From IMG/VR virus record IMGVR_UViG_3300034418_008897, positions 16,525 through 80,524 of that record: DNA of 64,000 nucleotides. The stretch is one strand, 5' to 3'. Each line of letters begins with the position of its first letter. The first letter of the stretch is position 1. The notes under the pieces are model-generated. The model did not search any database. It worked only from the letters and a program-made list of their open reading frames with translations, and was not told the DNA's origin. Positions 27,910 through 64,000 of this stretch are shown in pieces. Made by a program: the position numbers and the translations under genes. Source of the DNA: a virus.

Positions 27910-27970
27910 ATTATCTTATTTATTTGTTATTAACTTTCTTATTATAAAGAAAAAATTTTAATCTTTCTAG

Positions 27971-28408
27971 TTAGTTTGTACTGTCACTAGCAACCCTTAA
28001 GTAAAATTTACCATTTATAATAGTTCCAAACCAAACTTGTTTCTTACCTGCTGTTACAGTATAAGAGTTTGTGGTATTAGCCGGATCATCTAAAAATACA
28101 TACTCAGGAGAAAAGTTAAAAACTTTGTCTAAAGTATTATTAGAATTATCTAAAACAAAACTATGTAAACTTCTATTTTCAGCTTTAGTAGGATAAGTAA
28201 AACTTACCGGCAATCCATTACCTATAGGTGAAATATAATGTATATAAGAATGGTCATGCATTAGATTAGGAGTAATAACTGAACTATTATCTGTGATTAA
28301 TATCTGTCTGCTATCTGTGTCAGGTTTGTTAAAAATCTGCATAGCTCTAGGATTCCTAGTTGATTGTCCTAGTATAGTGTTATTTAATTGCGTGTTTGGC
28401 ATAATATA
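27971..28408 (-). CDS. Small structural protein before the scaffold gene
   Basis: A 145-residue protein (MPNTQLNNTILGQSTRNPRA at the start). The start at 28408 is preferred because an earlier in-frame ATG at 28456 lies inside the preceding gene. It is beta-rich, without transmembrane or catalytic motifs, ending in YTVTAGKKQVWFGTIINGKF and a short strand. Beta-rich proteins of this size near the capsid gene are often head-decoration or vertex proteins, but there is no direct evidence for that. Confidence 0.55.
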   Translation of the reverse strand, partial: YIMPNTQLNNTILGQSTRNPRAMQIFNKPDTDSRQILITDNSSVITPNLMHDHSYIHYISPIGNGLPVSFTYPTKAENRSLHSFVLDNSNNTLDKVFNFSPEYVFLDDPANTTNSYTVTAGKKQVWFGTIINGKFYLRVASDSTN

Positions 28409-47430: not shown

Positions 47431-48855
47431 TTATTTTTTATTATATAATATTCCTCCTTTGTTAAACTTATAACTACCGTAATAATTAGGTTTAGTACTC
47501 TCTTCTCCTGTTTCTGGGTTATAGTATAATATAGGTTCACTTACATCTTGCCAACCATCGCTATCTTTAAAAAAAGCATCTTTTTGAGTTCTAACTTCTT
47601 TTACTTGATGTCTGCCTGTTTTAGGGTTAAATACTAAAACTGTTTGCATTCTAGGGCTCGTCATAAGCGGAGTATAATAATCTTTAAGAGAGCCTGTTTT
47701 TTCTATAATAGGTCTAAAATCTGGTTTTTTAACCATAGGTCTCATTTCCATTTTATCTGGAATGATTGGTTTAGGCTTACTTATTAATCCAAGATTAAAT
47801 TTTATAGATTTTTTACCATTAGTAATTAAAGGATGATCATACCGACTAGTTGATGGTGGTAAAGTTCCAGTTAAATTCTTATAATCTTTAAACAAATCCT
47901 CCAATTTTTTCTCTTCTAATTTCCACTTAAGAGCCCCATTATAATCATCAGGCTTTATTTGTTTTAACTTTGCTAATCTTTCTTGTTGCATCTTATAGAT
48001 AGCCAATTCCAAATCGTATTTTTTCTTTTCATATTCAAAACTTGTCTTTTTAGGTGGCTCAATAGAAACAAGAGTCTTTTTTAACGAAACACCAGTATTG
48101 TTACTTTTTAAATCTACACTATCTATAGGTTTAGCATTTTTGTCCAAAAAAGCAGATCTTTTTGCTACGTCTGTTTTTAATTCTACAAACTTACCATTAA
48201 TTTCTTTTTGCCATTTACCATTTACTTTCCTATAAGTATTACCTCCATAAGTATAAGAACCTGCCCAATTTTTAGGATTAGAAGGTGGTAATATAGGTTG
48301 TATAGGGTTAGCAGGAATTTCGTCTTGCAAATAAAAATATTCTTTTTTTTGTTGATTATAAATTTTATCAGAAATTAACTCTCGTTCTTTGTCCGACGAT
48401 GCTTGCTCATAGTCCTCCCAAAGGCTACTAAAATAAGGAGAATGAATATGAGTACCTATAAGACGACCCCCGTGTAATTGATTTAACCTACTAGGAATTT
48501 TATTCCATAAATCATCACCTGACCCTATTAAAATTCCTTGTTCATCTTTAAGAATTATTTTATCACCTCTATTTTCAGGCTCATAACCGGCAGCAGCAAT
48601 TTGAGCAAAAATAGGACTTTTCCAACGATCATAATCCCATATACTATAATTATTTATATTATTTTGTATTTGATTTCGCGTAGTTTTAAAATCCTCCACT
48701 GCTTGTACATGCCTAGTATTACTATCGTTGTAAGCTTGCAATCTATTATTATATTCATCCCAAGTTTGAGCCTGGTAAGGATTAGTTTGAGGACGATAAT
48801 TTAAAGGATCTATCCTTCTACCTTTTTGAAATTTTTCTACATATAATAAACTCAT
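47431..48855 (-). CDS. Tagged cargo protein with shared module; possible HxH hydrolase-like region
   Basis: A 474-residue protein. Tag at both ends: MSLLYVEKFQKG at the start and KGGILYNKK at the end. Residues 128-150 read HGGRLIGTHIHSPYFS, then WEDYE, which resembles the H-x-H-x-P, S-x-x-D pattern of JAB-like or MuF-associated effector domains; the match is short. Residues 199-243 are the module shared with three other cargo proteins (GNTYRKVNGKWQKEINGKF). Residues 250-330 are a Lys-rich coiled coil. The rest is unassigned. Probably packaged with the other tagged proteins. Confidence 0.55.
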   Translation of the reverse strand: MSLLYVEKFQKGRRIDPLNYRPQTNPYQAQTWDEYNNRLQAYNDSNTRHVQAVEDFKTTRNQIQNNINNYSIWDYDRWKSPIFAQIAAAGYEPENRGDKIILKDEQGILIGSGDDLWNKIPSRLNQLHGGRLIGTHIHSPYFSSLWEDYEQASSDKERELISDKIYNQQKKEYFYLQDEIPANPIQPILPPSNPKNWAGSYTYGGNTYRKVNGKWQKEINGKFVELKTDVAKRSAFLDKNAKPIDSVDLKSNNTGVSLKKTLVSIEPPKKTSFEYEKKKYDLELAIYKMQQERLAKLKQIKPDDYNGALKWKLEEKKLEDLFKDYKNLTGTLPPSTSRYDHPLITNGKKSIKFNLGLISKPKPIIPDKMEMRPMVKKPDFRPIIEKTGSLKDYYTPLMTSPRMQTVLVFNPKTGRHQVKEVRTQKDAFFKDSDGWQDVSEPILYYNPETGEESTKPNYYGSYKFNKGGILYNKK

Positions 48856-48859
48856 ATTA

Positions 48860-49597
48860 TTAGGAATTATATCTTTGGTTAACCCAGTTCCCTCCTTGTG
48901 GTTGAGGCTTAACTTTATGTTGAGGCTTGACCTTCTTTCTTATAGCATTTAAATTAGCTGTTGCACTTAGCCCTGCGTTCCAAGTAAAATAAGGTTTGTC
49001 TTTATAACTTGAATTTGCTATACCTGCATTGCCGTATAAATTAAAAGAAAAAGGAGATTTTTTAGGTTGATAAGACAAACGCCCATAAGTACCCATAGTA
49101 GCTTCACCTTTTGCTTCTTGTTCTTTTTTAAGTAAACCTGCAAGGGATAAATAGTACCCATAAGTCCCTTTTAAATTAGAACCGTATTTACCTATATCGA
49201 ATTTAGAGCCTAGATGTCCTTGATGAGTTAATTTTAACCCATCATTATTAAATGAAGCTCCTATTCCTAACCCCATATCATATTTTTTACGAGGATTTTC
49301 TGTTACTTCTAAACCTAGCCTACCATATAATTTATTATTAGAATCTAAGGCTAAACCTACATCTCCATAAGTACGATTACCATCTAAACTAGTAACATTA
49401 GGATTTTTTATTCTATGTGTGTACATAAAATTAGTGTTGTAATTATTATCCCCTAGATTTGAATAATAATCGTTGCCGCCTTGTGTATATACAGCAAAAT
49501 TACTATTTAAAGGCATGCCGGTTTTTTTATTCCTCCCTTGTATATCATGCAGGCCAGTACCGCCTATTTGAAATTTTTGTACGTATAGTAAAGACAT
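48860..49597 (-). CDS. Tagged beta-barrel-like protein
   Basis: A 245-residue protein, first gene of the late arm. It starts MSLLYVQKFQIGGTG and has no signal peptide. Residues 75-215 are a regular series of amphipathic strands with Gly/Asn/Asp turns (GDVGLALDSNNKLYGRLGLE; MGLGIGASFNNDG; FSFNLYGNAGIA; WNAGLSATANL), typical of an outer-membrane-type barrel. A basic tail of about 30 residues (RKKVKPQHKVKPQP) follows, so unlike its neighbour it lacks a terminal aromatic BAM signal. It probably belongs to the same delivered set. Confidence 0.55.
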   Translation of the reverse strand: MSLLYVQKFQIGGTGLHDIQGRNKKTGMPLNSNFAVYTQGGNDYYSNLGDNNYNTNFMYTHRIKNPNVTSLDGNRTYGDVGLALDSNNKLYGRLGLEVTENPRKKYDMGLGIGASFNNDGLKLTHQGHLGSKFDIGKYGSNLKGTYGYYLSLAGLLKKEQEAKGEATMGTYGRLSYQPKKSPFSFNLYGNAGIANSSYKDKPYFTWNAGLSATANLNAIRKKVKPQHKVKPQPQGGNWVNQRYNS

Positions 49598-50187
49598 AGT
49601 GTATAAATATAAAGTTATATAGCAAATATTTCCGTAAAAGCAAAGAAAAATCCGCAGTGTAATATAGGTACTTGTAGAAAAAGCCCCCCCGGTAGTAGAG
49701 TAAAAAGAAGAAGAGTAGAAAATAGAAGTTGCAGAAAAAGAGGGGGGGGTAAGTTGAAAAATAGTGAAAGTTGGAAATAAAACAGAGAGGGAAGGGCTAG
49801 TCGTCTTGTCCCCCCGGCGGGCGCTTTGCGGGGGTTTGGTTCGTTGCTGCCGCGGCTCGTTATTGGGCGGGGGGTTACTTTCACGGTCCTGGTGATGGGG
49901 GCACTGCTTTCATCTTCGGCCTTGTTATCGTATTTAAGTTAACTTTGCTTGCTAGCGTGTCCGCTGCTGCGCTTGGCTCTCTTCTGCGTTTGGGTTCTAC
50001 TCGTCCGACCTCTCTAGGGGGTAGCCTGGTGTTGTCTTATTACACACGAGGGGGGGGGTGCCCTAGAGTTTTATTATGCCTAGATAACGGGCTTGGTACG
50101 TTATTATAACAACAACAACCAGAGCTGTATGGTTTTACAAGACACAATAGCTTAGTGAAAATCTTGTTTATTTAAAAAATAAAGAAA
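49598..50187. other. Divergent intergenic region with GC-rich core
   Basis: Late genes run left from here and early genes run right. In an otherwise roughly 30 percent GC sequence, bases 49801-49920 are about 64 percent GC by direct count. There are G and C runs (about 49686-49692, 49742-49748, 49811-49816, 50050-50058), a CCCCC/GGGGG pairing near 49811-49844, and purine-rich tracts at 49695-49800. No credible gene fits. It must hold both divergent promoters; a replication origin or a structured noncoding RNA is possible. A weak a-b-a'-b' pairing near 50117-50152 (AACCA/TGGTT and AGCT/AGCT) resembles the leaders downstream. Confidence 0.7.
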
Positions 50188-50514
50188 ATGACAACAACAA
50201 ACAAAAAAGGTTATTCTTGGGTAGATTGCCCAACTTTAACAGAAAGAATCGACAGATTAAGAGAGCAAATCAAAGCCGGAGAATTTGTGTATACAGGTAG
50301 TAGAATACACCCTACTACAAAGCATGAGATATTCCATGCTATAAAACCTAGTACAAGATTTATGATAAGATTCACTTTTAAATTTAATAGTGATGGTGAA
50401 AAGTATTGTAATTGGTTCGCTATGATCGGGTCAACAAAGGAGCAGGAACAATTTCTAAAAGAAGTTGGTCATGAAGCGTACCAGGAGTACCAGTCTAAAG
50501 AAATAGATTGGTAA
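50188..50514 (+). CDS. First early-arm protein, function unknown
   Basis: A 108-residue protein (MTTTNKKGYSWVDCPTLTER). A helix (ERIDRLREQIKAGEF) is followed by a beta region (RFMIRFTFKFNSDGEKYCNW) and a C-terminal helix (TKEQEQFLKEVGHEAYQEY). It is the gene closest to the divergent region, so it is probably among the first expressed after infection. No family recognised. The bases after its stop (50534-50569) form two short hairpins, ACGG/CCGT-type and GGCT/AGCC. Confidence 0.55.
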   Translation: MTTTNKKGYSWVDCPTLTERIDRLREQIKAGEFVYTGSRIHPTTKHEIFHAIKPSTRFMIRFTFKFNSDGEKYCNWFAMIGSTKEQEQFLKEVGHEAYQEYQSKEIDW

Positions 50515-50587
50515 TATCTAAAAATCAAAGCATGTCCGTACCAGACGGGGCTGAGAAGTGCTGAAAGCCAATCTGTTATTTACTAAC

Positions 50588-52901: not shown

Positions 52902-52942
52902 ACTCGTCTGAGCGAGTATAAATAGGCTTTAGGCTCAGAGCG

Positions 52943-52958
52943 TCCCACTTCGGTGGGG
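52943..52958 (+). promoter_or_regulatory. UUCG-capped hairpin in leader
   Basis: CCCAC and GTGGG close a TTCG loop (an unusually stable RNA tetraloop), with a further T-G pair. A CTCG/CGAG pairing lies upstream at about 52903-52916. There is no T-run, so it is more likely a processing or stability element than a terminator. Confidence 0.5.
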
Positions 52959-52985
52959 GTAGTATTAATTTAAAATTTAAAAGTT

Positions 52986-53797: not shown

Positions 53798-54280
53798 ATG
53801 TTAAAGATTAACAGACAAGCAGCATTAAAGCAGTTCAGAACTCAATCAGCGAAAGGCTTAAAATTAGAGCCAGGAACTGAGATTAGTGTTATGGAAGTAC
53901 GTGAGAACAACAACGAGGATGGTTCAGTGACTCACTCTTTAATCTGTTCAACAGATAAATCACTTGTGATTAACATCTCTTTATCTGATTACTTCAAAAT
54001 GGGAGTGGTAAACAATGGATCTCATTACACTTCAGAGGAAGGTGATGAGGACATCGAGATCTTCCAATCGTTCACTATCGAAACGGCAGAAGACCGTAAA
54101 GATAGAAACGGTGACTTAGTTTATCCTTTATATGCTTATGAAGGATGGGACGAGATGAGAGATGAAATCAGAGCAGGTAATGCTAAATTCGATTGGAATG
54201 CTCTAATTGAATCAGGATTGAAAGAAGGTATTACAGACCGTATCAGTCCATTACAAGATTATACTATCAAAATCGGATAG
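53798..54280 (+). CDS. Highly expressed early protein, function unknown
   Basis: A 160-residue protein (MLKINRQAALKQFRTQSAKG). Codons are noticeably richer in C-ending forms (ATC, TTC, AAC, CGT) than in neighbours, a sign of high expression. The first half is alpha/beta with VTHSLICSTDKSLVINISLS; an acidic segment GDEDIEIF follows. It has its own operator-like dyad upstream and a very strong terminator downstream, making it a stand-alone unit. No family recognised. Confidence 0.6.
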   Translation: MLKINRQAALKQFRTQSAKGLKLEPGTEISVMEVRENNNEDGSVTHSLICSTDKSLVINISLSDYFKMGVVNNGSHYTSEEGDEDIEIFQSFTIETAEDRKDRNGDLVYPLYAYEGWDEMRDEIRAGNAKFDWNALIESGLKEGITDRISPLQDYTIKIG

Positions 54281-55847: not shown

Positions 55848-55982
55848 AAATAAAATAAACTCTTCAACTTTATATAAAATATATAATATTAATATATATA
55901 AGCAACGTCTACATAACGTGCCACACTACTGCACTAACAAGACAGTAGCACACACAAATAATTTTATTATTTTGTATACTAT

Positions 55983-56000
55983 AAGGCCATACGCCTTTTT
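55983..56000 (+). terminator. Intrinsic terminator
   Basis: AAGGC pairs with GCCTT around a CATAC loop and runs into six Ts. It lies 34 bases upstream of the next gene. The 211 bases between the membrane-protein gene and this point hold no credible gene. Confidence 0.7.
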
Positions 56001-56034
56001 TATATATAATTATTTTTTAAAAAAAGTATAAAAT

Positions 56035-56196
56035 ATGGTTAAATTTAGAGTAATATTGATACCGATAGTAAGGTTAAATGAAGATGACTCTGCTGATTAT
56101 AAAGAGTGGAGAGAAGTAGAATATCGTAGTGCGAAGGAAGCGTTAGATGATTTAGAAAAAGATTATTTAGTAGTAAATATAGAAAGAATAAAATAA
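56035..56196 (+). CDS. Small early protein (53 residues)
   Basis: MVKFRVILIPIVRLNEDDSA, then a strongly charged helix (YRSAKEALDDLEKDYLVVNI). The pattern of a strand, an acidic loop, then a helix beginning SAKEAL resembles other small phage proteins with a beta-alpha-beta fold. It begins after the terminator, so its promoter should lie in or just after it. Function unknown. Confidence 0.5.
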   Translation: MVKFRVILIPIVRLNEDDSADYKEWREVEYRSAKEALDDLEKDYLVVNIERIK

Positions 56197-56213
56197 TTAT
56201 TAAAAGTAAAAAT

Positions 56214-56879
56214 ATGAAAGTAGGAGATAAAATATTAGGTTTTAAATTTTTTTATAGCGACTTATCTTATGTAAAAGAAATGGATAATTTTATAGGTAAA
56301 GTAGGTACTATAATAACTATAATTGATGATACCATAGAAATAGATTTTAATGGTGAAGGTATATGGTGGTATCCTAAAGAAGAGGCTAAATTATATTTAG
56401 TAGATGAAACTATTAAAGTTAGAGTTATAAAACCTAATATAATAGACCTTGATTTAGGTAAAGTTTATCCTGTATTGGAACAAAATGAAAGTTATTATCG
56501 GGTATTAGATAATGTAGGTCATGCTAGGTGGATAATGAAAGAATATTTTAGTTTAGTAAAGGAAAATGATGATGTTATGTATAGACTTAAAGAAGAAGTT
56601 AAAAAATATTTAAAAGAAGATAATCCTTTGAAAGATAAAACTATGTCTATGGAGGATTGGAGTATGACTAGTTTTTCTAGCGTAGCCTTAGAGGAGGCGG
56701 ATTATAGTGTGGATTTGAGTTCTATAGATAAAGATGAAATGGAGGAAGTAAGTGAGGGTTTTATAGAAGTTGCTAAATTTTTTAACTATAGAGATAAAGC
56801 TTTTTGGTTAAATCCTAACTATAATTGGGAATTGAAATATTATGATAAAGAAGTATTTTTAGAACCAACTAAAAAATAA
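56214..56879 (+). CDS. Protein with two SH3-like domains, function unknown
   Basis: A 221-residue acidic protein. Residues 1-62 form one small beta-barrel-like unit (MKVGDKILGFKFF; IGKVGTIITIIDDTIEIDFN; WWYPKEEAKLY), and residues 64-115 a second (LGKVYPVLEQNESYYRVLDN). The C-terminal 100 residues are acidic and helical. Tandem SH3-like folds often bind peptides or nucleic acids; no specific family was recognised. Confidence 0.55.
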   Translation: MKVGDKILGFKFFYSDLSYVKEMDNFIGKVGTIITIIDDTIEIDFNGEGIWWYPKEEAKLYLVDETIKVRVIKPNIIDLDLGKVYPVLEQNESYYRVLDNVGHARWIMKEYFSLVKENDDVMYRLKEEVKKYLKEDNPLKDKTMSMEDWSMTSFSSVALEEADYSVDLSSIDKDEMEEVSEGFIEVAKFFNYRDKAFWLNPNYNWELKYYDKEVFLEPTKK

Positions 56880-56908
56880 AATTATGTTAAATCTTATTAC
56901 ACTTTGAT

Positions 56909-57316
56909 ATGGTTACAATATTTAGAATGGGGTATATACTCTTATTGAGTTATAACCCGTGTGATGTATTTTATTATTTTAATGTAGATGAAATGCATGG
57001 ATTGTCTTTAAAAGAATGTCAAGAACATGTAAATACAAAAGATTCGGCATATATTGCTGGATGGAGCAATTTTATTCCTAAAGAATCAGGTGAGTATAAT
57101 GATGATGATGCTAGATTTGTATTCATTAATTTATCAAGATGCACAGATCCTGTAAAAACAACAGGTCTTATTATGCATGAGATGATGCATCATTCTTTAT
57201 GGATGAATAGTTATAATGCAGAAACTAGAGAAGAAGAGATTATTACCTGGGCTGAAGAAGAAACTTATGAGGTTTATGAAATAATTAAACCTATGTTAAG
57301 TTTTAAATCAGAGTAA
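56909..57316 (+). CDS. Zincin-type metallopeptidase-like protein
   Basis: A 135-residue protein with HEMMH at 90-94 in TTGLIMHEMMHHSLWM, an HExxH zinc site, followed by EEEIITWAEEE at 108-118, which supplies possible third-ligand glutamates. Upstream, RFVFINLSRCTD forms a strand before the helix, as in small zincins. The organisation resembles small HExxH proteins of phages and toxin-antitoxin systems. Substrate unknown; an early host-takeover or anti-defence protease is possible. It begins at 56909 because an upstream ATG gives only a 7-residue frame. Confidence 0.65.
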   Translation: MVTIFRMGYILLLSYNPCDVFYYFNVDEMHGLSLKECQEHVNTKDSAYIAGWSNFIPKESGEYNDDDARFVFINLSRCTDPVKTTGLIMHEMMHHSLWMNSYNAETREEEIITWAEEETYEVYEIIKPMLSFKSE

Positions 57317-57370
57317 AATATTTAATTGCAGTGAAAAACGATTAATTTAATCATTTAATAGTGTAAAATT

Positions 57371-57604
57371 ATGGAAAGAATAGAAGTAATGCATAGATTA
57401 TTTAGAATATTAGTTTCTAATAAATTCATAAAAGTAGGCGATTTTTATAATATATCTATAGAAAGAGGTTCTATAAAATTACAAGGTGTATTTTGTAGTA
57501 AAATAACAAGAAAATATATGGAACTAGGAGCTAAATTTCACATAGAAGCCAATGGATTTGTATATTTAAAAAAGGGTAGTGTAGAAATTGTTTTAACAGA
57601 TTAA
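57371..57604 (+). CDS. Small early protein, function unknown
   Basis: A 77-residue basic protein (MERIEVMHRLFRILVSNKFI) with a short helix followed by at least four beta strands (YNISIERGSIKLQGVF; FHIEANGFVYLKKGSVEIVL). The strand-turn-strand order is that of a small beta domain. It overlaps nothing and has one base between its stop and the next start. No family recognised. Confidence 0.5.
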   Translation: MERIEVMHRLFRILVSNKFIKVGDFYNISIERGSIKLQGVFCSKITRKYMELGAKFHIEANGFVYLKKGSVEIVLTD

Positions 57605-57605
57605 T

Positions 57606-57872
57606 ATGAATAATAAATATGAAATAGAATATTGGGATAGAGTAGATTATTATAGCGTAAATTCTAAAGTTAAAAGTACTGAAATTTGGGAAGGTTCTAA
57701 AGAAGAAATATTTAAAAAATTTTATGATAAAAATAATTCTCTTCGATATTGTAATGGTAGTTATTATAAGTTTAAAAATAAATTAATTGAAAAAGAATAT
57801 AAAGAATGGTATGATTCTTTAAGTGAAAATACAAAATTTAATATGTACTACGGTAATGGTATTGTTGATTAA
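57606..57872 (+). CDS. Small early protein, function unknown
   Basis: An 88-residue protein rich in Lys, Asn, Tyr and Glu (MNNKYEIEYWDRVDYYSVNS). A strand is followed by a helix (WEGSKEEIFKKFYD) and Tyr-rich stretches. It begins one base after the previous stop. No motif recognised. Confidence 0.5.
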   Translation: MNNKYEIEYWDRVDYYSVNSKVKSTEIWEGSKEEIFKKFYDKNNSLRYCNGSYYKFKNKLIEKEYKEWYDSLSENTKFNMYYGNGIVD

Positions 57873-57883
57873 AAAAAATAAGA

Positions 57884-58075
57884 ATGAATAACAATAAACA
57901 CATATGGGAAGGTTGGACTGTTCAAGATTTTATAAACGAGTTAGAGATAACTTTTCCTTATCAGACATTTAAAACAAAAGAAGAAGTTAAAGAATGGTGT
58001 AAATCAGAACAACCTTATTATAAAAAACATATACCTGAAGTGTATGCACATTTTTTAAGTAAAACTAATTTTTAA
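57884..58075 (+). CDS. Small early protein, function unknown
   Basis: A 63-residue protein (MNNNKHIWEGWTVQDFINEL) with two helices separated by a basic stretch (TFKTKEEVKEWCKSEQPYYK). It looks like a small helical domain, and the shape GWTVQDFINEL recalls DNA- or protein-binding helices of small phage proteins. No family recognised. Confidence 0.5.
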   Translation: MNNNKHIWEGWTVQDFINELEITFPYQTFKTKEEVKEWCKSEQPYYKKHIPEVYAHFLSKTNF

Positions 58076-58096
58076 TAAATTAAAAATTAAAATAAA

Positions 58097-58507
58097 ATGA
58101 AAAAAATATTATTTATCATAATGTTACTCTTAGTAGGAGTAAGTTATGGACAAGAAAATGAACAAGAAGAAGCTATATTTGTAACAACAGGTAGCTTTAG
58201 TAAATTTGAAAACCAAAATAACCCAGAAGAATCTTTCATAAGTGAAGGTAAAATAAATCAGATTTATGTATTTAAATTTTATGAAGGTTGGACTAAAGGA
58301 TCTTTAGTATCTAGAGGTAGCGATATAAGTTTAAAAATTATTAATGTAAAACAAAAAACCGACAATACTATATTAATAGAAGCTAAAGATATAGAAAATA
58401 CTATAATGTATATTAAAGTAGATTTTGTAAATGAAGTAGTAGAAACTTTAATAGGCCTTAATGGAGGTTATTTAACTACGACCCACAATTTATTAACTTA
58501 TAATTAA
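58097..58507 (+). CDS. Secreted early protein with signal peptide
   Basis: A 136-residue protein whose first 20 residues (MKKILFIIMLLLVGVSYGQ) are a clear Sec signal peptide with a likely cut after SYG. The mature part is beta-rich and acidic (EAIFVTTGSFSKFEN; INQIYVFKFYEG), with no cysteines or lipobox. A secreted early phage protein most often acts in the periplasm, for example in superinfection exclusion. Its stop overlaps the next start as TAATG. Confidence 0.65.
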   Translation: MKKILFIIMLLLVGVSYGQENEQEEAIFVTTGSFSKFENQNNPEESFISEGKINQIYVFKFYEGWTKGSLVSRGSDISLKIINVKQKTDNTILIEAKDIENTIMYIKVDFVNEVVETLIGLNGGYLTTTHNLLTYN

Positions 58508-58683
58508 TGAAATTAGAAAAAATGGAAGGTAAAAAATATGGCTCAGAATATTGTTATTTTTTTAATGAAGATGGTCAATGGATAGGTTATTTTAAAGCTG
58601 TATTTTCTAGAAGTTATTATGTTAAAGATACTAGATGTGGTTATTATTTTCATAATTCTTTATACAAATCTTATTATATATAA
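58507..58683 (+). CDS. MKL-YxI family microprotein, copy 1
   Basis: A 58-residue protein starting MKLEKMEGKKYG and ending YKSYYI. Very rich in Tyr and Phe (GYFKAVFSRSYYVKDTRCGY), it alternates aromatic and polar residues as in a small beta-sheet. It begins by TAATG overlap with the secreted protein gene. Its TAA is followed directly by the GC-rich island before the tRNA at 58793. One of seven related genes in this window. Confidence 0.65.
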   Translation: MKLEKMEGKKYGSEYCYFFNEDGQWIGYFKAVFSRSYYVKDTRCGYYFHNSLYKSYYI

Positions 58684-58716
58684 AATTGTGTCCCGCCTAG
58701 CCTCTCTCACGAAACA

Positions 58717-58745
58717 TTGGTGGCGTAGCGGTTCTCCTTTATAAT
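58717..58745 (+). promoter_or_regulatory. Candidate sigma70-like promoter before tRNA
   Basis: TTGGTG at 58717-58722 and TATAAT at 58740-58745, 17 bases apart, 48 bases upstream of the tRNA. The TATAAT element is perfect and the -35 element matches TTGACA in three or four positions. Bacteroidetes hosts usually use a different consensus, so use in the host is uncertain. A hairpin (GTCAG/CTGAC with inner ATCTT/AAGAT) follows at 58763-58788. Confidence 0.4.
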
Positions 58746-58792
58746 ACCGGTTAAATTAGAGAGTCAGTTATCTTAATAAGATGCTGACAAAA

Positions 58793-58866
58793 GCTCCTGT
58801 AGCTCAGTTGGTTAGAGCACCTGACTCATAATCAGGTGGTCCTAGGTTCGAGCCCTAGCAGGAGCA
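58793..58866 (+). tRNA. tRNA with CAU anticodon (Met or Ile2)
   Basis: A complete 74-base cloverleaf: acceptor GCTCCTG/CAGGAGC, D-stem GCTC/GAGC, anticodon stem CCTGA/TCAGG with loop CTCATAA (CAT at 58827-58829), T-stem CTAGG/CCTAG with loop TTCGAGC, discriminator A. The CCA is not encoded. The GACTCATAATC context occurs in both elongator tRNA-Met and lysidine-modified tRNA-Ile2; sequence alone does not decide between them. Confidence 0.95.
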
Positions 58867-58882
58867 CTTAAATATTTAAATT

Positions 58883-59083
58883 ATGAAATTAGTAAAAGCA
58901 GGAAATAAAAACAATTTCCATTTTGAATACCATGAAACATTATTAAATGAATATCTAGTATTAAACTTTGAAGGTTACCACATATGTAAATATAATAATA
59001 AAATAATATCTAAAAAATATTGGTTAAGTGATGAAATAAAAGGTTTTTGTATCACCAGAAACGAAAAAAGTTATAACATATGA
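58883..59083 (+). CDS. MKL-YxI family microprotein, copy 2
   Basis: A 66-residue protein (MKLVKAGNKNNFHFEYHETL, ending KSYNI). It shares with its relatives the KKYW, then DEIKGF, then NEKSYNI C-terminal pattern. It begins 16 bases after the tRNA. Its TGA stop is overlapped by ATGAAATTAAATTAA, which encodes MKLN and stops: the start of a further copy that has decayed (59080-59094). Confidence 0.65.
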   Translation: MKLVKAGNKNNFHFEYHETLLNEYLVLNFEGYHICKYNNKIISKKYWLSDEIKGFCITRNEKSYNI

Positions 59084-59104
59084 AATTAAATTAAAATAAA
59101 TATT

Positions 59105-59416
59105 ATGGAAAAATTTGTAGAAGACGGTCAAGTAGCCGTATTATATAGCCCAAGTTTTGGAGCTGGATGGTCAACATGGAATAGTAATAAGGATATTATT
59201 TTTGATAAAAGAATAGTAAAAAAAGTATTAGCTAAAAAACATTCTGAAATAACTGAAGAATGGATGAAAAAGATAGGTTATAAAAATATTTATTGCGGTG
59301 GTGCAGAAGATTTAACAATAATATGGTTACCTATATCATCTAAATTTATTATAAATGAGTATGATGGCTTTGAATCTATAGAACTATATGATGATATTAA
59401 CTTTATAACTGCTTAA
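59105..59416 (+). CDS. Conserved phage protein (AVLYSPSFGAGWSTW family)
   Basis: A 103-residue protein with the ordered motifs of a widely distributed phage family: VAVLYSPSFGAGWSTWN, then DIIFDKRIVKKVL, CGGAEDLTIIWLP and FIINEYDGFESIEL. Function unknown, but it occurs in many AT-rich and crAss-like phages. The following gene starts two bases after its stop. Confidence 0.75.
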   Translation: MEKFVEDGQVAVLYSPSFGAGWSTWNSNKDIIFDKRIVKKVLAKKHSEITEEWMKKIGYKNIYCGGAEDLTIIWLPISSKFIINEYDGFESIELYDDINFITA

Positions 59417-59418
59417 TT

Positions 59419-59985
59419 ATGCCTAATTATTGTTGGAATTCTATTACTATATACAAAGAAGATATTAAATTATTGGAAGAATTAAAATCAAAATTTGAAA
59501 ATAATAGCTTTAATTATAGTATAGATTATTATAAAAATTTATTTCCTGCTGATTATATTTTACCAGATATAGAAATTCATGACATTTATAGTGTTAGTAG
59601 TACTTTTGGCTCTAAGTGGTTTGATTTATCTAGCTGCTATATAGAAGAAGATAATACTTTGATATTAAATGGAGATAGTGCTTGGGGCCCTATTGTACCT
59701 TTAGTAAAAATGCTATCAGAAGCTTATCAATGTAATACTTCTATATATTATGAAGAACCAGGTTGTGATTTTGGTGGTAAAGCTGAATATAATTGTGGAG
59801 AAATTGTAGAAGAATTACACACTACTTACTTGCATATAAGATATATAGATGATGGATTAGAAGCTATTTATAATGAATTTCAAGAAGGTTTTATAAGTTG
59901 TGAAAGATTGGCTGAAATATCTGAATTTGTAAGTGATGAGGATTTTGAAGAAATATTAAATAATTATAAAGATGTACAAAATTAA
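59419..59985 (+). CDS. Api92-like ferredoxin-fold protein (DUF1281)
   Basis: A 188-residue protein. It begins MPNYCWNSITI (family MPNWC-N), then FGSKWFDL, then DSAWGPIVPLVKMLSEAYQC and IYYEEPGCDFGGKAEY, the same order as Api92-like proteins (the family named after an Acyrthosiphon pisum phage). The fold is ferredoxin-like; no function is known. Length is typical. It ends with a Tyr/Glu-rich helix. The next small gene overlaps its end by 14 bases. Confidence 0.85.
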   Translation: MPNYCWNSITIYKEDIKLLEELKSKFENNSFNYSIDYYKNLFPADYILPDIEIHDIYSVSSTFGSKWFDLSSCYIEEDNTLILNGDSAWGPIVPLVKMLSEAYQCNTSIYYEEPGCDFGGKAEYNCGEIVEELHTTYLHIRYIDDGLEAIYNEFQEGFISCERLAEISEFVSDEDFEEILNNYKDVQN

Positions 59986-60124
59986 AAAAGATAATAAGCA
60001 TAGAAATTCTATGAACAACAGAAAAAGTTTAACAATTAAATTTAAAGTTTTAGATAAACATTGTTTTAAAAAAATGTCAGTTAAACTAAAAATGAAAAAC
60101 CCTGAGTTGCAAGAAATGAATTAA
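59972..60124 (+). CDS. Small basic peptide, function unknown
   Basis: A 50-residue, very basic peptide (MYKIKKDNKHRNSMNNRKSL) that starts in the last codons of the Api92-like gene; a second in-frame ATG at 60011 would give 37 residues. Contains a Lys-rich stretch (CFKKMSVKLKMKN). The short length and overlap make it less certain than its neighbours. Confidence 0.4.
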   Translation: MYKIKKDNKHRNSMNNRKSLTIKFKVLDKHCFKKMSVKLKMKNPELQEMN

Positions 60125-60244
60125 AAATTTAACATTACCTCATTGACCATTTCAAAAGCTATATGCTGATGTGATGTAGAGAATTTAATGTACGCATTGA
60201 ATTATAAATAATGTTATTAAGTATAAACAGTAAAATTTAAAATT

Positions 60245-60478
60245 ATGGAAAAAAGAACAATAGTATTAGAACCATCAACTAACACTCACTCATTAAATGC
60301 TAATGATGTTAAGGTTGAAAAAATCGACAATTCAATTTTAAAATTGACAATCGATGGTGAAGGAATTGTAACGCATGGTGAACATGGAACATTGACTACA
60401 GAATCAAAGAATGTTATTAAATATGTACAACAAGAGTACAATCCGGTTACAAGAAAGTTAAGAAACGCTTTCGATTAA
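60245..60478 (+). CDS. Small early protein, function unknown
   Basis: A 77-residue beta-rich protein (MEKRTIVLEPSTNTHSLNAN) with repeating strands (ILKLTIDGEGIVTHG). Codons are more GC-rich than in neighbours, suggesting good expression. It is preceded by 120 bases of leader without a visible gene and followed by a clear terminator at 60496. No family recognised. Confidence 0.55.
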   Translation: MEKRTIVLEPSTNTHSLNANDVKVEKIDNSILKLTIDGEGIVTHGEHGTLTTESKNVIKYVQQEYNPVTRKLRNAFD

Positions 60479-60495
60479 TTAAACCTTAAATTACT

Positions 60496-60521
60496 AGCCA
60501 GGTGTTAATGCCTGGCTTTTT
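60496..60521 (+). terminator. Intrinsic terminator
   Basis: AGCCAGG pairs with CCTGGCT around an eight-base loop, followed by five Ts. It ends three bases before the start of the next microprotein gene, so that gene must either use readthrough or a start hidden in this region. Confidence 0.88.
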
Positions 60522-60524
60522 ATT

Positions 60525-60731
60525 ATGAAGTTAGAGAGGGAAAAATTATTTTATTCAGAAGAAATTGCTTTGTATCTTAGGTTTGCACAAGGTAAAGGTT
60601 TTTTAAAAAGGTTTGAAGGGTTATATGCCTATGATTTTCCTAGGATTGAGGAATATCATAAATGTTATTTTAAAAACAATGAAGCAATAGGGTTAGCCTT
60701 AAATACAGAGGGAATAGAATATTTCATTTAA
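60525..60731 (+). CDS. MKL-YxI family microprotein, copy 3
   Basis: A 68-residue protein (MKLEREKLFYSEEIALYLRF; end GIEYFI). It departs more from the others but keeps MKL, a GFLKRFEG segment, CYFKNNEAIGLAL, and the Y-F-I terminus. It starts three bases after the T-run of a terminator, leaving no room for a leader of its own. Confidence 0.55.
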   Translation: MKLEREKLFYSEEIALYLRFAQGKGFLKRFEGLYAYDFPRIEEYHKCYFKNNEAIGLALNTEGIEYFI

Positions 60732-60750
60732 AAATTAAATTATAAAAATT

Positions 60751-61671
60751 ATGGAAGAAATAATTATTAACATTACATCTATAGAGCAATTAAAAGGATT
60801 ATCTTTAAACTTAACAACAGGTAAATTCTATGACAATGTAAAAAATAAAGATGTAGTAAAATTATTGAAACAAGTATTCACAAATAAAGCTCGTTTTAAA
60901 TCACGTTTTGTAGATTTGCTAAACTCTATTAAAACTAGATTAGATGCTTTCCCAAACTTTCCAGAAGGATTTTTTGACAATTTAGGGGAAGATGATTACT
61001 ATGAATTTGTAAGGTATATTGATTATAACAAAATGCCATATGAAGAAGTAAAAGCATATTGGGCTAAAATGGAAAAGGAACATGGTATCACATATGACAT
61101 ACAAGATACTTCTGTATTTGAATGTGAAGGCCTAATGAATGAATTGTTGGATATGTATGATGATGCTACACCATTCACATATGAGGAAGCATTCAAAATT
61201 GAAAATGAAGAATTTCAAGCAATGGTATTCGGTACTATTGATATTGTTGATATGATTAAAGAATTAGGTTCTAAAAGAATCAAAACAGATGGTAAACGTG
61301 TCAAACATAAAGATTTTTCAACATCAGGAGAATTTCTAGGTATGAAAGAATACGATGTTATTTATGAAACTCATGAAGTAAATTGTAGTAAATTAGGTTT
61401 AAATAGTAATGCTTATGCTTTGAGATGTTGGTGTACTACTACGGATAAAGAACATTGGTTATGGATAGAAGATCAATACAAAGATGATCCATTAGAAGCA
61501 GTAGCATCAACAATGAGAGTACATGAAAATATCATACCACATATTAAAGAAATTAAACGTCAAGGAGATATATTATTAGTTGAAACTGGTGATATAGATA
61601 TCAAACCAGAAGGTGAAATGATTCCTTTAACAGCAGGGCAATATTTTGGGTTTTTAACAGCTCAATCATAA
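60751..61671 (+). CDS. Conserved phage protein (RQGDxLL family), function unknown
   Basis: A 306-residue acidic protein. The C-terminal half has a family-like ordered pattern: KEYDVIYETHEVNCSKLGLN, then YALRCWCTTTDKEHWLWIED, then EAVASTMRVHENIIPHIKEI and KRQGDILLVETGD. The N-terminal 150 residues are helical (VVKLLKQVFTNKARF). Proteins ending in a similar RQGDILL segment are widespread in phages with no known function. Codon use is more GC-rich than neighbours, suggesting good expression. Confidence 0.65.
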   Translation: MEEIIINITSIEQLKGLSLNLTTGKFYDNVKNKDVVKLLKQVFTNKARFKSRFVDLLNSIKTRLDAFPNFPEGFFDNLGEDDYYEFVRYIDYNKMPYEEVKAYWAKMEKEHGITYDIQDTSVFECEGLMNELLDMYDDATPFTYEEAFKIENEEFQAMVFGTIDIVDMIKELGSKRIKTDGKRVKHKDFSTSGEFLGMKEYDVIYETHEVNCSKLGLNSNAYALRCWCTTTDKEHWLWIEDQYKDDPLEAVASTMRVHENIIPHIKEIKRQGDILLVETGDIDIKPEGEMIPLTAGQYFGFLTAQS

Positions 61672-61736
61672 AATACTTACATCAAGCGTATTTCCTTAGA
61701 TTTCACCTGCAAATGGACTACTAAAAATAATGATAA

Positions 61737-61925
61737 ATGAAATTAAAACACCACAAATACATTAATGAAATAGGATTAACTAGCTTTTTTAGAGCTATTC
61801 ATTCAAATTATGGTATGTTGAGAATTGGTTATCTTATAGAAAGAGACAATAAATTATATTATAACAATAAACACGAACTTGTAGGTTATGGTATTTATGG
61901 AAGATTTAAAAATTATTGGATATGA
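61737..61925 (+). CDS. MKL-YxI family microprotein, copy 4
   Basis: A 62-residue protein (MKLKHHKYINEIGLTSFFRA; end KNYWI). It shares MKL, YNNKHELVGYGI and Y-W-I. Its TGA overlaps the start of copy 5 as ATGA, the two copies forming a tandem pair. Confidence 0.6.
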   Translation: MKLKHHKYINEIGLTSFFRAIHSNYGMLRIGYLIERDNKLYYNNKHELVGYGIYGRFKNYWI

Positions 61926-62098
61926 AATTAATAAAAAATGAATATAACTCTACAAAATGGTTTCACACTTATTATAAAAGAAGTAAAAAATCAATTAATG
62001 AAGGATTATGTGTTACTAAATTAAGTAAAAAATATTATTTATTTGATGAAATAGTGGGTTTTGAACTATCTAAAAATGAAAAAAGTTATTATATATAA
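61922..62098 (+). CDS. MKL-YxI family microprotein, copy 5
   Basis: A 58-residue protein (MKLIKNEYNSTKWFHTYYKR; end EKSYYI). The ATG at 61922 is preferred over an in-frame ATG at 61916 because the relatives all begin MKL and because the ATGA overlap is the same as at 62838 and 63729. Close to copy 2 at the end: DEIVGFELSKNEKSYYI. Its TAA overlaps the next gene as TAATG. Confidence 0.65.
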   Translation: MKLIKNEYNSTKWFHTYYKRSKKSINEGLCVTKLSKKYYLFDEIVGFELSKNEKSYYI

Positions 62099-62583
62099 TG
62101 GGAACAAATTTTTATTCAATACCTAAAGTTAAAGACTTAGAAAAGAAAAGACAAAAATTAATTGAAGAAATTCAATCAATGGACATATCAAATGCCGAGC
62201 TTTGTGAAAATCGCTTTAGAATTCATGAAGATGGTTGGGATAGATTATCACCTTGGGATAAATTTATTAACGGTAATTCAATACATTTAGGTAAACGCTC
62301 AATGGGATGGAAGTTTTGTTGGAACTTTAACGATAACAAATACTACTCAAATAAAGAAGAATTATTAGACTTTATTCGTAGTAGAAGAGTTGTCGATGAA
62401 TATGGTGATGAACTACAACCAGATCAATTTATTCAAATGGCATTAGATTGGGGTGAACCCGATGGTATGGTTGCAGATGAAGAGTATATGAAAGAACATC
62501 ATTTTTGGATGTCAGACCCGTCATTATACGCAGATAGAGAAATAGACGGTTTAAGAGTATCATCAAGTACGGAATTTAGTTAA
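62098..62583 (+). CDS. Conserved phage protein (MGTNFY, HLGKRSxGW family)
   Basis: A 161-residue protein with the markers of a widespread phage family: MGTNFYSIPKVKD, then SIHLGKRSMGWKFCWNF, then SNKEELLDFIRSRRVVDEYG. In the family these are MGTNYY, (I)HIGK-S-GW-F and a helix followed by DEYG. Function unknown. Unlike the microproteins, it uses more balanced codons. It is coupled to copy 5 by TAATG. Confidence 0.8.
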   Translation: MGTNFYSIPKVKDLEKKRQKLIEEIQSMDISNAELCENRFRIHEDGWDRLSPWDKFINGNSIHLGKRSMGWKFCWNFNDNKYYSNKEELLDFIRSRRVVDEYGDELQPDQFIQMALDWGEPDGMVADEEYMKEHHFWMSDPSLYADREIDGLRVSSSTEFS

Positions 62584-62601
62584 AAATTAAAAATTAAAAA
62601 T

Positions 62602-62841
62602 ATGTATACAGATATTTCAACAACAAAAGGATACCCAAAAACTTTAATAATCAGAAACCACGAAGGTGGGATGATATGGCAAGTTTATCACGTTGAAAAA
62701 TTGAGTGAAGCTGATAAATTATCAAGCAACGCAACAATGAACGGTTTTGAAGCCATAACTTTAGAGGACTACCAAGAATATATGCAAGAAACTTGGCCTG
62801 AATGGAGAGAAACAGAAGGTAGTAAAGAAATAATTAAATGA
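62602..62841 (+). CDS. Small early protein, function unknown
   Basis: A 79-residue acidic protein (MYTDISTTKGYPKTLIIRNH) with a beta-rich start (GGMIWQVYHVEKLSEADKL) and a C-terminal acidic helix (EDYQEYMQETWPEW). The order NHEGGMIWQVYHVEKLSEAD suggests a small alpha/beta domain. Its TGA overlaps the next start as ATGA. Confidence 0.55.
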   Translation: MYTDISTTKGYPKTLIIRNHEGGMIWQVYHVEKLSEADKLSSNATMNGFEAITLEDYQEYMQETWPEWRETEGSKEIIK

Positions 62842-63011
62842 AATTAATACTTTTTAAAAGCAATGAATTTTATTGTTATAAGTCCCAAGACATCGTAACA
62901 AGACGTATAGGTTATAGAAATTATTATAATCAAGAGAAATGTTATTATAATAATTCAGGTATTATTATAGGTTATGAATATTATAATAAATTACATTATT
63001 ATAATATATAA
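62838..63011 (+). CDS. MKL-YxI family microprotein, copy 6
   Basis: A 57-residue protein (MKLILFKSNEFYCYKSQDIV; end HYYNI). Extremely Tyr/Asn-rich, with runs such as RNYYNQEKCYYNNSG. It shares MKL, IIIGYEYY and Y-N-I. It starts by ATGA overlap, and its TAA runs directly into the second GC-rich island before the tRNA-like gene. Confidence 0.6.
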   Translation: MKLILFKSNEFYCYKSQDIVTRRIGYRNYYNQEKCYYNNSGIIIGYEYYNKLHYYNI

Positions 63012-63167
63012 AATAATTAGCCCTCTGCCTAGCGCTGGGTATGGATCGAAGATGGGGACGGCGGTCTTAAATGACAATAGGTTTTTGAACCTAGCACACT
63101 TCCCTCCGAATCGTGGGTCGGCACAGTTTTTACCGTTTCTGGGGTTATTTTGTAAAAAACGGTTTAT
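63012..63167 (+). other. GC-rich noncoding island upstream of tRNA-Leu-like gene
   Basis: A 156-base island, GC-rich in its first 110 bases, with several possible stems: TAGGTT/AACCTA at about 63079-63095 and ACCGTTT/AAACGGT at 63132-63138 and 63157-63163. GCCTAGC near its start also occurs in the island before the other tRNA. An open frame across it has Pro/Arg-biased composition unlike any gene here and is rejected. It may be a leader, promoter or structured RNA. Confidence 0.55.
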
Positions 63168-63293
63168 AGTCAGGTGGCGGAATTGGTAGACGCATGAATA
63201 AAGGTTAATAGTAAAGATAACGAAGAGTAACCTTGAGATACCCGTAAAGTCAGCTCATAAGTTATCATATAGGTTCGAATCCTGTCCTGACTA
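63168..63293 (+). tRNA. tRNA-Leu-like gene with abnormal ~40-base insertion
   Basis: Acceptor AGTCAGG/CCTGACT, T8, then a tRNA-Leu-type D-arm (GCGGAATTGGTAGACGC), and T-stem ATAGG/CCTGT with loop TTCGAAT and discriminator A. The part between D- and T-arms is 75 bases instead of about 33, and no standard five-pair, seven-loop anticodon arm can be drawn. AAGGTTA/TAACCTT encloses 20 bases in it, and GATA/TATC a second. It may be a tRNA with a small intron, one with an extra element, or a decayed gene. The anticodon is not assignable. Confidence 0.6.
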
Positions 63294-63315
63294 CAAATTA
63301 CAAATTACAAAAGTT

Positions 63316-63528
63316 ATGAAAAATAAAGATTTAAAAATAGAACAAAGAAAATCAGTGTCTATGAACTTCAATGATGCTTGGCACAAAGAAGGAGATTTTA
63401 TAGAGGTAACTGAATGGTCTAATGAAGAAGGTTGGGATATACAAATAAATGATACTAATCATTTTTCTTTTCACTTTACAGAATTTAAGGCTTTAAAGAA
63501 GTTAATAAATTTTTTAGAAAAAAGTTAA
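63316..63528 (+). CDS. Small early protein, function unknown
   Basis: A 70-residue protein (MKNKDLKIEQRKSVSMNFND) with strand-rich middle (WNEEGWDIQINDTNHFSFHF-like pattern at 36-55) and a C-terminal helix (FKALKKLINFLEKS). The strand, W-G-hydrophobic, then helix order is that of a small phage family with a final F-A-L-KKLI helix. It starts 22 bases after the tRNA-like gene. Confidence 0.5.
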   Translation: MKNKDLKIEQRKSVSMNFNDAWHKEGDFIEVTEWSNEEGWDIQINDTNHFSFHFTEFKALKKLINFLEKS

Positions 63529-63534
63529 TTATAT

Positions 63535-63732
63535 ATGAAGTTGATATTAAGTAAAAGTTATTATGATAATAATCAATTATATTTTCTTAATTTTTCTACA
63601 TATGGTATAATTATGCAGGGTTATGAAATAATTAATTGGTACGATGAAACTGTGTCTAAAGTATATTATATTAATAATGAGAAGATTGGTTTTGAAATTA
63701 AAGAAAGTACAATAAAACACTATAATATATGA
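63535..63732 (+). CDS. MKL-YxI family microprotein, copy 7
   Basis: A 65-residue protein (MKLILSKSYYDNNQLYFLNF; end KHYNI). It shares the beginning MKLIL-x-KS with copy 6 and the terminal pattern VYYINNEKIGFEI then YNI. Its stop overlaps the metallophosphoesterase start as ATGA. Confidence 0.65.
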   Translation: MKLILSKSYYDNNQLYFLNFSTYGIIMQGYEIINWYDETVSKVYYINNEKIGFEIKESTIKHYNI

Positions 63733-64000
63733 AAAATATTTACATAGGAGATATACACGGTCGTGATATATGGAAACAGATAGTAGCAGAGAATGAAGAT
63801 GCTGACAATATTGTATTCATTGGTGATTATTTTGATTCATTTGATATACCAGGTGTTGTACAATTAAGAAATGCTAGAGATATAGTAGAATTTAAAAAAT
63901 CCACAGAATTAGATCCTAGCAAACGAGTTTACTTGTTAATAGGAAACCATGATATTCATTATATGCGAGGTATTAACGGTAAAGGTACAACTAGTGGTTT
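63729..64000 (+). CDS. Metallophosphoesterase (calcineurin-like), truncated at window edge
   Basis: The first 90 residues of a gene that runs off the right end. MKNIYIGDIHGRDIWK (D8, H10), then IVFIGDYFDSFD (D33) and VYLLIGNHDIHYM (N73, H74, D75) are the three metal-binding blocks of calcineurin-like phosphoesterases. Phage members include PrpE/serine-threonine-phosphatase-like enzymes and Ap4A hydrolases; the substrate cannot be told from this part. Its ATG overlaps the preceding microprotein stop. Confidence 0.85.
   Translation, partial: MKNIYIGDIHGRDIWKQIVAENEDADNIVFIGDYFDSFDIPGVVQLRNARDIVEFKKSTELDPSKRVYLLIGNHDIHYMRGINGKGTTSG

What the first reader, a model, noticed from the sequence alone, without database searches (positions are those of the whole stretch)
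58507..63732. New dispersed microprotein family: starts MKL, ends Tyr-X-Ile
Seven genes (58507, 58883, 60525, 61737, 61922, 62838, 63535) encode 57-68-residue proteins that begin MKL, are rich in Tyr/Asn/Phe, have a G-[FY] in the middle and near the end (E-I-x-G-F), and end YYI, YNI, YFI, YWI, YYI, YNI and YNI. They lie singly or in tandem among unrelated genes, usually sharing start/stop bases with them (TAATG or ATGA). Expansion of one microprotein family within 5 kb suggests selection for variants, for example as inhibitors of diverse host defences, or a spreading cassette.
Basis: seen in the sequence. Interest (0 to 1): 0.82.

Follow-up and report, generated by a model that had tools for sequence, protein, structure and literature searches.

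The report
Phage array of MORN-like microproteins
A phage carries at least nine very different copies of one tiny protein, and they look like stripped-down versions of MORN-repeat proteins that several other phages line up at the same spot beside the same two conserved genes, probably as a fast-changing set of small binding proteins.

Summary
Seven 57-68-residue genes lie where stated, and no other ATG-started ORF in the window has this form. A near-identical contig extends past the window end and adds two more copies (nine in all). Profile tests beat composition-matched shuffles. No Pfam or PHROG family matches, and I found the family in no other species.

Its context is not unique. Two conserved neighbours (306 aa and 77 aa) occur in six other phage contigs; a seventh has the 306-type gene alone. 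In each, adjacent slots hold Tyr/Asn/Gly-rich repeat proteins, mostly MORN_2-type: tandem, often ATGA-overlapping, with a C-terminal tail constant within a phage (K-x-YYI, YYAR, FYL, FYARM). The microproteins sit in the same slots, end in Y-x-I, are predicted to fold as a similar beta-meander, and match the mini-MORN profile in register (hhalign P 3.4e-4; 0 of 500 column permutations). They miss the Pfam MORN_2 threshold, so I call them MORN-like.

Best reading: a diverging set of beta-hairpin binders working with the 306/77 pair, organised like a polyimmunity locus. Related arrays show excess amino-acid change at variable repeat positions. Anti-defence function is plausible but untested.

The parts
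58507..58683 (+). microprotein gene m1 (58 aa, ends YYI); shares TAATG with the gene before it
   Evidence: 9.1 bits with the extended mini-MORN HMM, 0.001 of kept-end shuffles as high
58883..59083 (+). microprotein gene m2 (66 aa, ends YNI); followed by a leftover start, ATGAAATTAAATTAA
60525..60731 (+). microprotein gene m3 (68 aa, ends YFI), between the 77-aa and 306-aa genes
61737..61925 (+). microprotein gene m4 (62 aa, ends YWI), next gene after the 306-aa gene
61922..62098 (+). microprotein gene m5 (58 aa, ends YYI), head to tail with m4; AF2-modelled
62838..63011 (+). microprotein gene m6 (57 aa, ends YNI); ATGA overlap with the gene before it
63535..63732 (+). microprotein gene m7 (65 aa, ends YNI); ATGA overlap with the phosphatase gene after it; closest of all to mini-MORN
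   Evidence: 14.2 bits, 0 of 2000 kept-end shuffles
60245..60478 (+). conserved 77-aa gene (TIVLEPSTNTH...HGEHGT...IKYVQQE), beside repeat-protein arrays in six other phage records and beside the 306-type gene in two Flavobacterium genomes
60751..61671 (+). conserved 306-aa gene (CWCTTTDKEHWLWI...IKRQGD), within repeat-protein arrays in seven other phage records; its domain is the C-terminus of LRR-like proteins in two bacterial genomes
59078..59088 (+). junction word ATATGAAATTA over the m2 stop codon
61920..61930 (+). junction word ATATGAAATTA at the m4/m5 head-to-tail join

Best explanation
The microproteins are a lineage-specific, strongly diverged form of the small MORN-type beta-hairpin repeat proteins that a group of phages (probably infecting Bacteroidota) keep in tandem or dispersed arrays around a conserved pair of genes (306 aa and 77 aa). 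Each protein is a short antiparallel beta-meander with a variable body and a constant last strand (K-x-Y-x-I). Copies arise by head-to-tail duplication through the repeated ATGAAATTA start word, which also gives the ATGA gene overlaps. Shown: the family, its nine copies, the shared slots, constant tails within each phage, the profile match, and turnover of related arrays. Inferred: the variable body binds changing host or competitor proteins and the constant tail docks on a shared partner, most simply the 306-aa or 77-aa protein (in bacteria the 306-type domain is fused to an LRR-like repeat body). The set would then act like a polyimmunity locus carried by a phage: a stock of small neutralising binders. 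I put about 0.8 on the MORN-like array identity and about 0.3 on the neutralising-binder function; the confidence given is for the whole statement.
For: Family beyond composition. Slot synteny: 306 and 77 genes with repeat-protein genes in G019, G020, G030, G033, G036 and G038, and the 306 gene alone in G029; G029, G030, G033, G036 and G038 were fetched with a MORN query, not with the 306 gene. Profile match to mini-MORN in the expected register: hhalign P 3.4e-4, 0 of 500 column permutations reach the score, P 4.5e-5 with an extended set. Six of nine microproteins are the top six of 83 small ORFs (nine copies, 74 controls) scored with the extended mini-MORN HMM. AF2: last four strands of m5 (23-31, 35-40, 43-49, 54-57) correspond in order and motif to those of a YYAR mini-MORN (15-20, 26-33, 36-45, 50-56). 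BFVD matches of m5 include MORN proteins of Solumvirus (prob 0.92) and Orpheovirus, none significant. Uniform tails and ATGA junctions in 26/26, 21/26 and 8/8 array genes of three phages. Turnover G030 vs G036. pN/pS about 1.6 at variable positions, 0.46 and 0.87 at framework positions. LRR-306 fusions.
Against: No window copy has a Pfam hit, and MORN_2 finds nothing in this genome even at E 0.01. The first profile comparison, against the long MORN proteins of G019, was not significant, although it aligned the expected segment. m4, m5 and m6 do not individually beat shuffles against the mini-MORN HMM, and m9 is marginal. PDB fold search found nothing. The AF2 model rests on nine sequences and the five models range from 51 to 85 pLDDT. 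Near-identical contigs show no variation across the microgenes. No toxin or defence gene was recognised among the neighbours tested. The docking idea has no direct evidence.
Confidence: 0.5

Rival explanations
1. Convergent slot use: the microproteins are an unrelated Tyr/Asn-rich beta-hairpin family that merely occupies the same insertion hot spot beside the 306/77 genes, as the EYDTNGN repeat proteins do in G020.
For: A third kind of repeat protein sits in the same slots in L045/G020, so the slots accept different families. The match to MORN is weak for several copies and absent at Pfam level.
Against: Register agreement (K..Y.[ND]...G[FY], spacing 22-24 in five copies), the K-x-Y-x-I tail shared with G019, the permutation test and intermediate-looking small YYAR proteins in G038.
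Confidence: 0.2
2. Polyimmunity or antitoxin stock: the copies neutralise polymorphic toxins or toxin-type defence effectors met during infection, by direct binding as YwqK-type antitoxins are thought to do, with no role for the 306/77 proteins.
For: Organisation matches homogeneous polyimmunity loci: tandem, same strand, short spacing, divergent paralogs, no toxin gene between, differing between relatives (PMC3482391). YwqK is treated as the antitoxin of YwqJ (PMC8321402). Excess replacement at variable positions in two related arrays.
Against: No cognate toxin known. The constant tails and the persistent 306/77 neighbours are not explained. MORN is not among the immunity families named in that paper (no occurrence).
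Confidence: 0.3
3. Structural or scaffold role: the proteins are small virion or host-membrane-associated components, duplicated for dosage, with MORN-type sheets binding lipid or assembling by edge strands.
For: MORN repeats in eukaryotes are linked to membranes (own knowledge); beta-meanders can pair edge to edge; copies are many.
Against: The genes lie in the small-gene plus-strand region away from the structural genes on the minus strand. Divergence between copies (about 20-43% identity) does not fit dosage. Copy number and kind turn over between relatives.
Confidence: 0.1
4. Selfish or neutral expansion: short genes that duplicate easily through the ATGAAATTA word and persist with little function.
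For: Junction repeats and leftover starts; overall pN/pS near 1 in two related arrays.
Against: Nine intact frames with conserved framework positions and tails; framework pN/pS 0.46 in one array (only 0.87 in the other).
Confidence: 0.1

Closest known systems
MORN_2 (PF07661) repeat proteins, including those annotated 'toxin-antitoxin system YwqK family antitoxin'
   Same: K..Y.[ND][GN]...G[YF] beta-hairpin register, 22-24-residue G-to-G spacing in five of nine copies, predicted antiparallel meander, K-x-Y-x-I tail like that of the G019 MORN proteins
   Different: No copy reaches a Pfam hit; the H of HG and the W of GYW are lost; spacing shortened to 18-20 in four copies; only 57-69 aa; MKL start (MEL in m9)
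Small MORN-variant proteins of phages (G030/G036 YYAR array, G037 YYL array, G029 FYL array, uncultured Caudovirales 'MORN variant' entries)
   Same: Size 54-64 aa, tandem or dispersed genes, often ATGA junctions, tail constant within a phage, 306/77 neighbours in G030 and G036 (306 only in G029)
   Different: They keep recognisable MORN_2 repeats; other N-terminal words (MQDKKP, MNKDI, MNQ) and other tails
Homogeneous polyimmunity loci (Zhang et al. 2012, PMC3482391)
   Same: Tandem same-strand divergent paralogs, short spacing, no toxin gene between, content differs between close relatives
   Different: Carried by phages; protein family not among those described there; associated with the conserved 306/77 genes; neutralising activity not shown
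EYDTNGN repeat proteins beside the 306/77 genes in G020 (weak RHS_repeat resemblance)
   Same: Same two genomic slots; Tyr/Asn/Gly-rich repeats; one of the two ends IYYIV
   Different: Different repeat sequence, longer (114-115 aa), one gene per slot

Membership tests
Pfam MORN_2 (PF07661) | match to the family HMM above its gathering score | tested here: not met
   No Pfam hit for the seven window members up to E 1; no MORN_2 match in this genome or its near-identical contig up to E 0.01
Pfam MORN_2 (PF07661) | repeat of about 22-24 residues with conserved G-Y-W and N-G turns | tested here: inconclusive
   G-to-G spacing 22-24 in m2, m3, m7, m8, m9 and 18-20 in m1, m4, m5, m6 (A replaces the second G in m9); W lost, NG mostly NN or ND; profile match P 3.4e-4, 0 of 500 permutations
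Pfam MORN_2 (PF07661) | antiparallel beta-hairpin meander | tested here: inconclusive
   Met by AF2 prediction only: all-beta, last four strands as in a mini-MORN; fold searches give no significant hit
YwqK-type antitoxin | encoded with and neutralising a cognate toxin | not testable with these tools
   No toxin recognised among the neighbours tested; neutralisation needs an experiment
Homogeneous polyimmunity locus | tandem same-strand paralogs with short intergenic distance and no toxin gene between | tested here: inconclusive
   Met in G019, G029 and G037; in the window only m4-m5 are tandem and the rest are dispersed on the same strand; not every intervening gene was identified
Homogeneous polyimmunity locus | copy number and kind differ between close relatives | tested here: met
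   Met for G030 vs G036; not assessable for the window phage itself, whose only near relative is nearly identical
Homogeneous polyimmunity locus | members neutralise toxins | not testable with these tools
   needs an experiment
306/77-linked repeat-protein array (defined here) | repeat-protein genes in the slots beside the 306-type and 77-type genes | tested here: met
   m3 between the 77 and 306 genes, m4-m5 after the 306 gene; same slots in G019, G020, G030, G033, G036, G038

The most novel reading that the evidence does not exclude
Phages carry a hypervariable recognition system: a conserved core (306-aa and 77-aa proteins) plus a replaceable, fast-evolving set of tiny beta-hairpin adaptors that share a phage-specific C-terminal docking tail. 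Different phages have filled the same slots with MORN, EYDTNGN or degenerate MORN-like adaptors, and the set neutralises or retargets host factors.
Probability: 0.25. Interest if true: 0.85.

Novelty: new variant of a known kind. Interest (0 to 1): 0.62.

Why it matters
My paper searches found no description of such arrays in phages. One study reports MORN repeats 37 times more frequent in long-read than in assembled marine viral data, so arrays like these may be widely missed (PMC9238414). If the constant-tail, variable-body idea is right, this is a compact phage system for keeping up with host variation, with two conserved partner genes and a tail motif that make it directly testable. The microproteins also show how far a repeat protein can drift below family-model detection while genome context still points to its kind.

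Tried and rejected
Chance or composition: rejected by leave-one-out HMM against shuffles. Known family: Pfam and PHROGs give nothing useful. Close relatives elsewhere: protein and degenerate-DNA scans of viral contigs returned only this phage's own near-identical contig, apart from the chance hits below; tblastn in annotated phages none; 400 Flavobacteriaceae genomes none (without a positive control). L027/L028 hit of m7 (32%): judged chance, a 28-aa ORF overlapping a longer gene. Pattern hits L055-L059: inspected, unrelated. Long MORN profile A3 against the microproteins: not significant; reported because it is one of three profile comparisons, the later two being against small MORN proteins. 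PDB fold search: nothing. Terminase relatives: most contigs end before the array region, so absence there is uninformative. RNA between m1 and tRNA-Met and after m6: folding z -1.5 and +1.2, no structured RNA claimed. Terminase search of bacterial genomes found nothing.
Full report
What is there. The window is G000:C1:16525-80524, the last 64 kb of an 80.5-kb IMG/VR virus record. It is a tailed phage: a terminase, a portal and a major head protein match PHROGs, all on the minus strand. The last 14 kb carries small plus-strand genes. Seven of these, at 58507, 58883, 60525, 61737, 61922, 62838 and 63535, encode 57-68-residue proteins with MKL starts and Y-x-I ends, as reported. The near-identical contig IMGVR_UViG_3300034374_008812 continues 6.7 kb beyond the window and adds two more, MKL...EYYYI and MEL...KQYYI. 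I call the nine m1 to m9.

Is it more than chance? Yes. An HMM built from the other eight scores each left-out copy above all 1000 full shuffles of it. For seven of nine it also beats all 1000 shuffles that keep three residues at each end; 3 and 1 of 1000 exceed m4 and m6. Invariant positions over nine copies are M1, L3, a middle G, a Tyr in the K-x-Y-[YWF] strand, and the terminal Y-x-I. No Pfam family matches the seven window copies, and the best PHROG E-value is 0.048. Scans of viral contigs, annotated phages and 400 Flavobacteriaceae genomes gave no other owner.

How copies arise. The first nine bases of most copies (ATGAAATTA) recur at the 3' end of four copies as ATATGAAATTA, across the stop codon. 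In the 17-kb L026 all four occurrences are such ends, with 0.17 expected and no shuffle reaching four. At m4 the word is the start of m5, and at m9 it is the start of the next gene. At m2 and m8 it is a leftover start that leads to a stop within a few codons. This fits head-to-tail duplication and partial loss by recombination at the shared start word (inference). In L047, whose phosphatase is 81% identical, the MGTNYY gene, one small gene and the phosphatase follow each other without a microprotein.

The context. Relatives of the 306-aa neighbour (60751-61671) led to L044 (G019, 115 kb). There, more than 20 MORN_2 proteins (Pfam E 1.5e-15 for the one tested) lie mostly head to tail, nearly all ending K-x-Y-Y-I, joined by the same ATATGA overlap, beside the 306-type and 77-type genes. 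A MORN search of viral contigs then returned arrays with other constant tails: YYAR in G030 and G036, FYL in G029, FYARM in G033, YYL in G037. Of these MORN-selected records, G019, G029, G030, G033, G036 and G038 carry the 306-type gene within the array region, and five of the six carry the 77-type gene too. In G020 the same two slots hold a different repeat protein, EYDTNGNxIYYEDSxGYW. In the window, m3 lies between the 77-aa and 306-aa genes and m4-m5 follow the 306-aa gene. In G038, small degenerate YYAR proteins lie singly among unrelated genes, as the microproteins do.

Are the microproteins MORN-like? The motif K-x-Y-[YWF]-x-x-[ND]-x-x-x-G-[FY] lines up with MORN K-G-N-Y-V-N-G-K-x-H-G-Y. 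The distance from the middle G to the next G (A in m9) is 22-24 in m2, m3, m7, m8 and m9, against 24 in the MORN arrays, and 18-20 in the other four (read). Against the long MORN proteins the profile comparison failed (P 0.3), although the one segment aligned was this one. Against 35 small MORN proteins hhalign gave P 3.4e-4 in the same register, and none of 500 column permutations reached the score, the best being close (20.2 against 20.6). With six more array members, added for their tails and position, P was 4.5e-5. Six of nine microproteins were then the top six of 83 small ORFs (nine copies plus 74 controls of this phage), while m4, m5 and m6 were indistinguishable from shuffles. That extended set was chosen after the first result and is supporting evidence only. 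AlphaFold gives m5 an all-beta meander (best model pLDDT 85, the others 51-77) whose last four strands correspond in order and motif to those of a YYAR mini-MORN. Fold search of m5 in BFVD lists MORN proteins of giant viruses among non-significant hits; the PDB gives nothing. Because no copy reaches a MORN_2 hit, I do not file them as MORN_2 members. I call them MORN-like, most likely derived.

How it may work. Shown: variable bodies with a tail constant within a phage but different between phages; ATGA overlaps in 26/26, 21/26 and 8/8 array genes of three phages; array turnover between G030 and G036, whose flanks are mostly 79-92% identical at DNA level while much of the array differs. In two arrays young enough to measure, pN/pS is 0.46 and 0.87 at MORN framework positions and 1.57 and 1.56 at the variable positions. 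These are simple counts without a likelihood test, and the paralogs are related. Also shown: in a Chitinophagales genome and in a genome of the Flavobacterium family the 306-type domain is the C-terminus of a protein whose body looks like LRR or receptor-L repeats, and two Flavobacterium genomes carry the 306-type and 77-type genes side by side without an array. Inferred: the repeat body is the recognition part, the tail docks on the 306-aa or 77-aa protein, and the set covers changing targets. The organisation is what Zhang et al. describe for homogeneous polyimmunity loci: tandem, same-strand, closely spaced, divergent paralogs that differ between strains (PMC3482391), although MORN is not named there. 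YwqK is treated as the antitoxin of YwqJ in Bacillus subtilis (PMC8321402); that YwqK is of the MORN_2 kind rests on annotation and my own knowledge.

Limits. Every phage record is a metagenomic contig, several are fragments, and absence in terminase relatives is uninformative because most of their contigs stop short. There are no expression data. Across 56,179-63,970 the two near-identical contigs do not differ at all, so there is no sign of current change in this population. The 306-type and 77-type proteins have no known function. The host is inferred to be a Bacteroidota member from the Flavobacterium and Chitinophagales homologs only.

Noticed in passing
window 52902-52964 +: A Pistol self-cleaving ribozyme (Rfam RF02679, 74 bits against a gathering score of 34.5), directly after a deaminase-like gene.
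   Followed up: no
window 63168-63293 +: A tRNA-like gene with Leu/Ser-type D and T arms but a 66-nt middle, longer than the model allows; ARAGORN reads it as tRNA-Ser(TGA) with a 31-nt intron. Possibly an interrupted or decaying tRNA.
   Followed up: partly
L026:13397-13470 +: A tRNA read by ARAGORN as tRNA-Asn with anticodon ATT, which is unusual.
   Followed up: no
L044, L081, L082 (G019): At least 150 MORN_2 repeats in one 115-kb phage contig, in more than 20 genes; a second tail type (GYYDMGKRVDY...DKLRIKE) occurs beside the K-x-YYI tail.
   Followed up: partly
L045:10581-10928 and 11301-11645: EYDTNGNxIYYEDSxGYW repeat proteins (weak RHS_repeat resemblance) occupy the slots held by MORN proteins in other phages; similar ones stand beside MORN genes in L113.
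   Followed up: partly
L093:110-1873, L116:295-2220, L091:4396-5501: The 306-type domain in bacteria: fused to an LRR-like repeat body in two genomes, and next to the 77-type gene in two Flavobacterium genomes.
   Followed up: partly
window 27376-28001, 48739-50058, 53884-54169, 55870-56178: Nearly all SNPs between the window and its near-identical contig cluster in a few short patches, suggesting recombination; 50178-50575 does not align.
   Followed up: no
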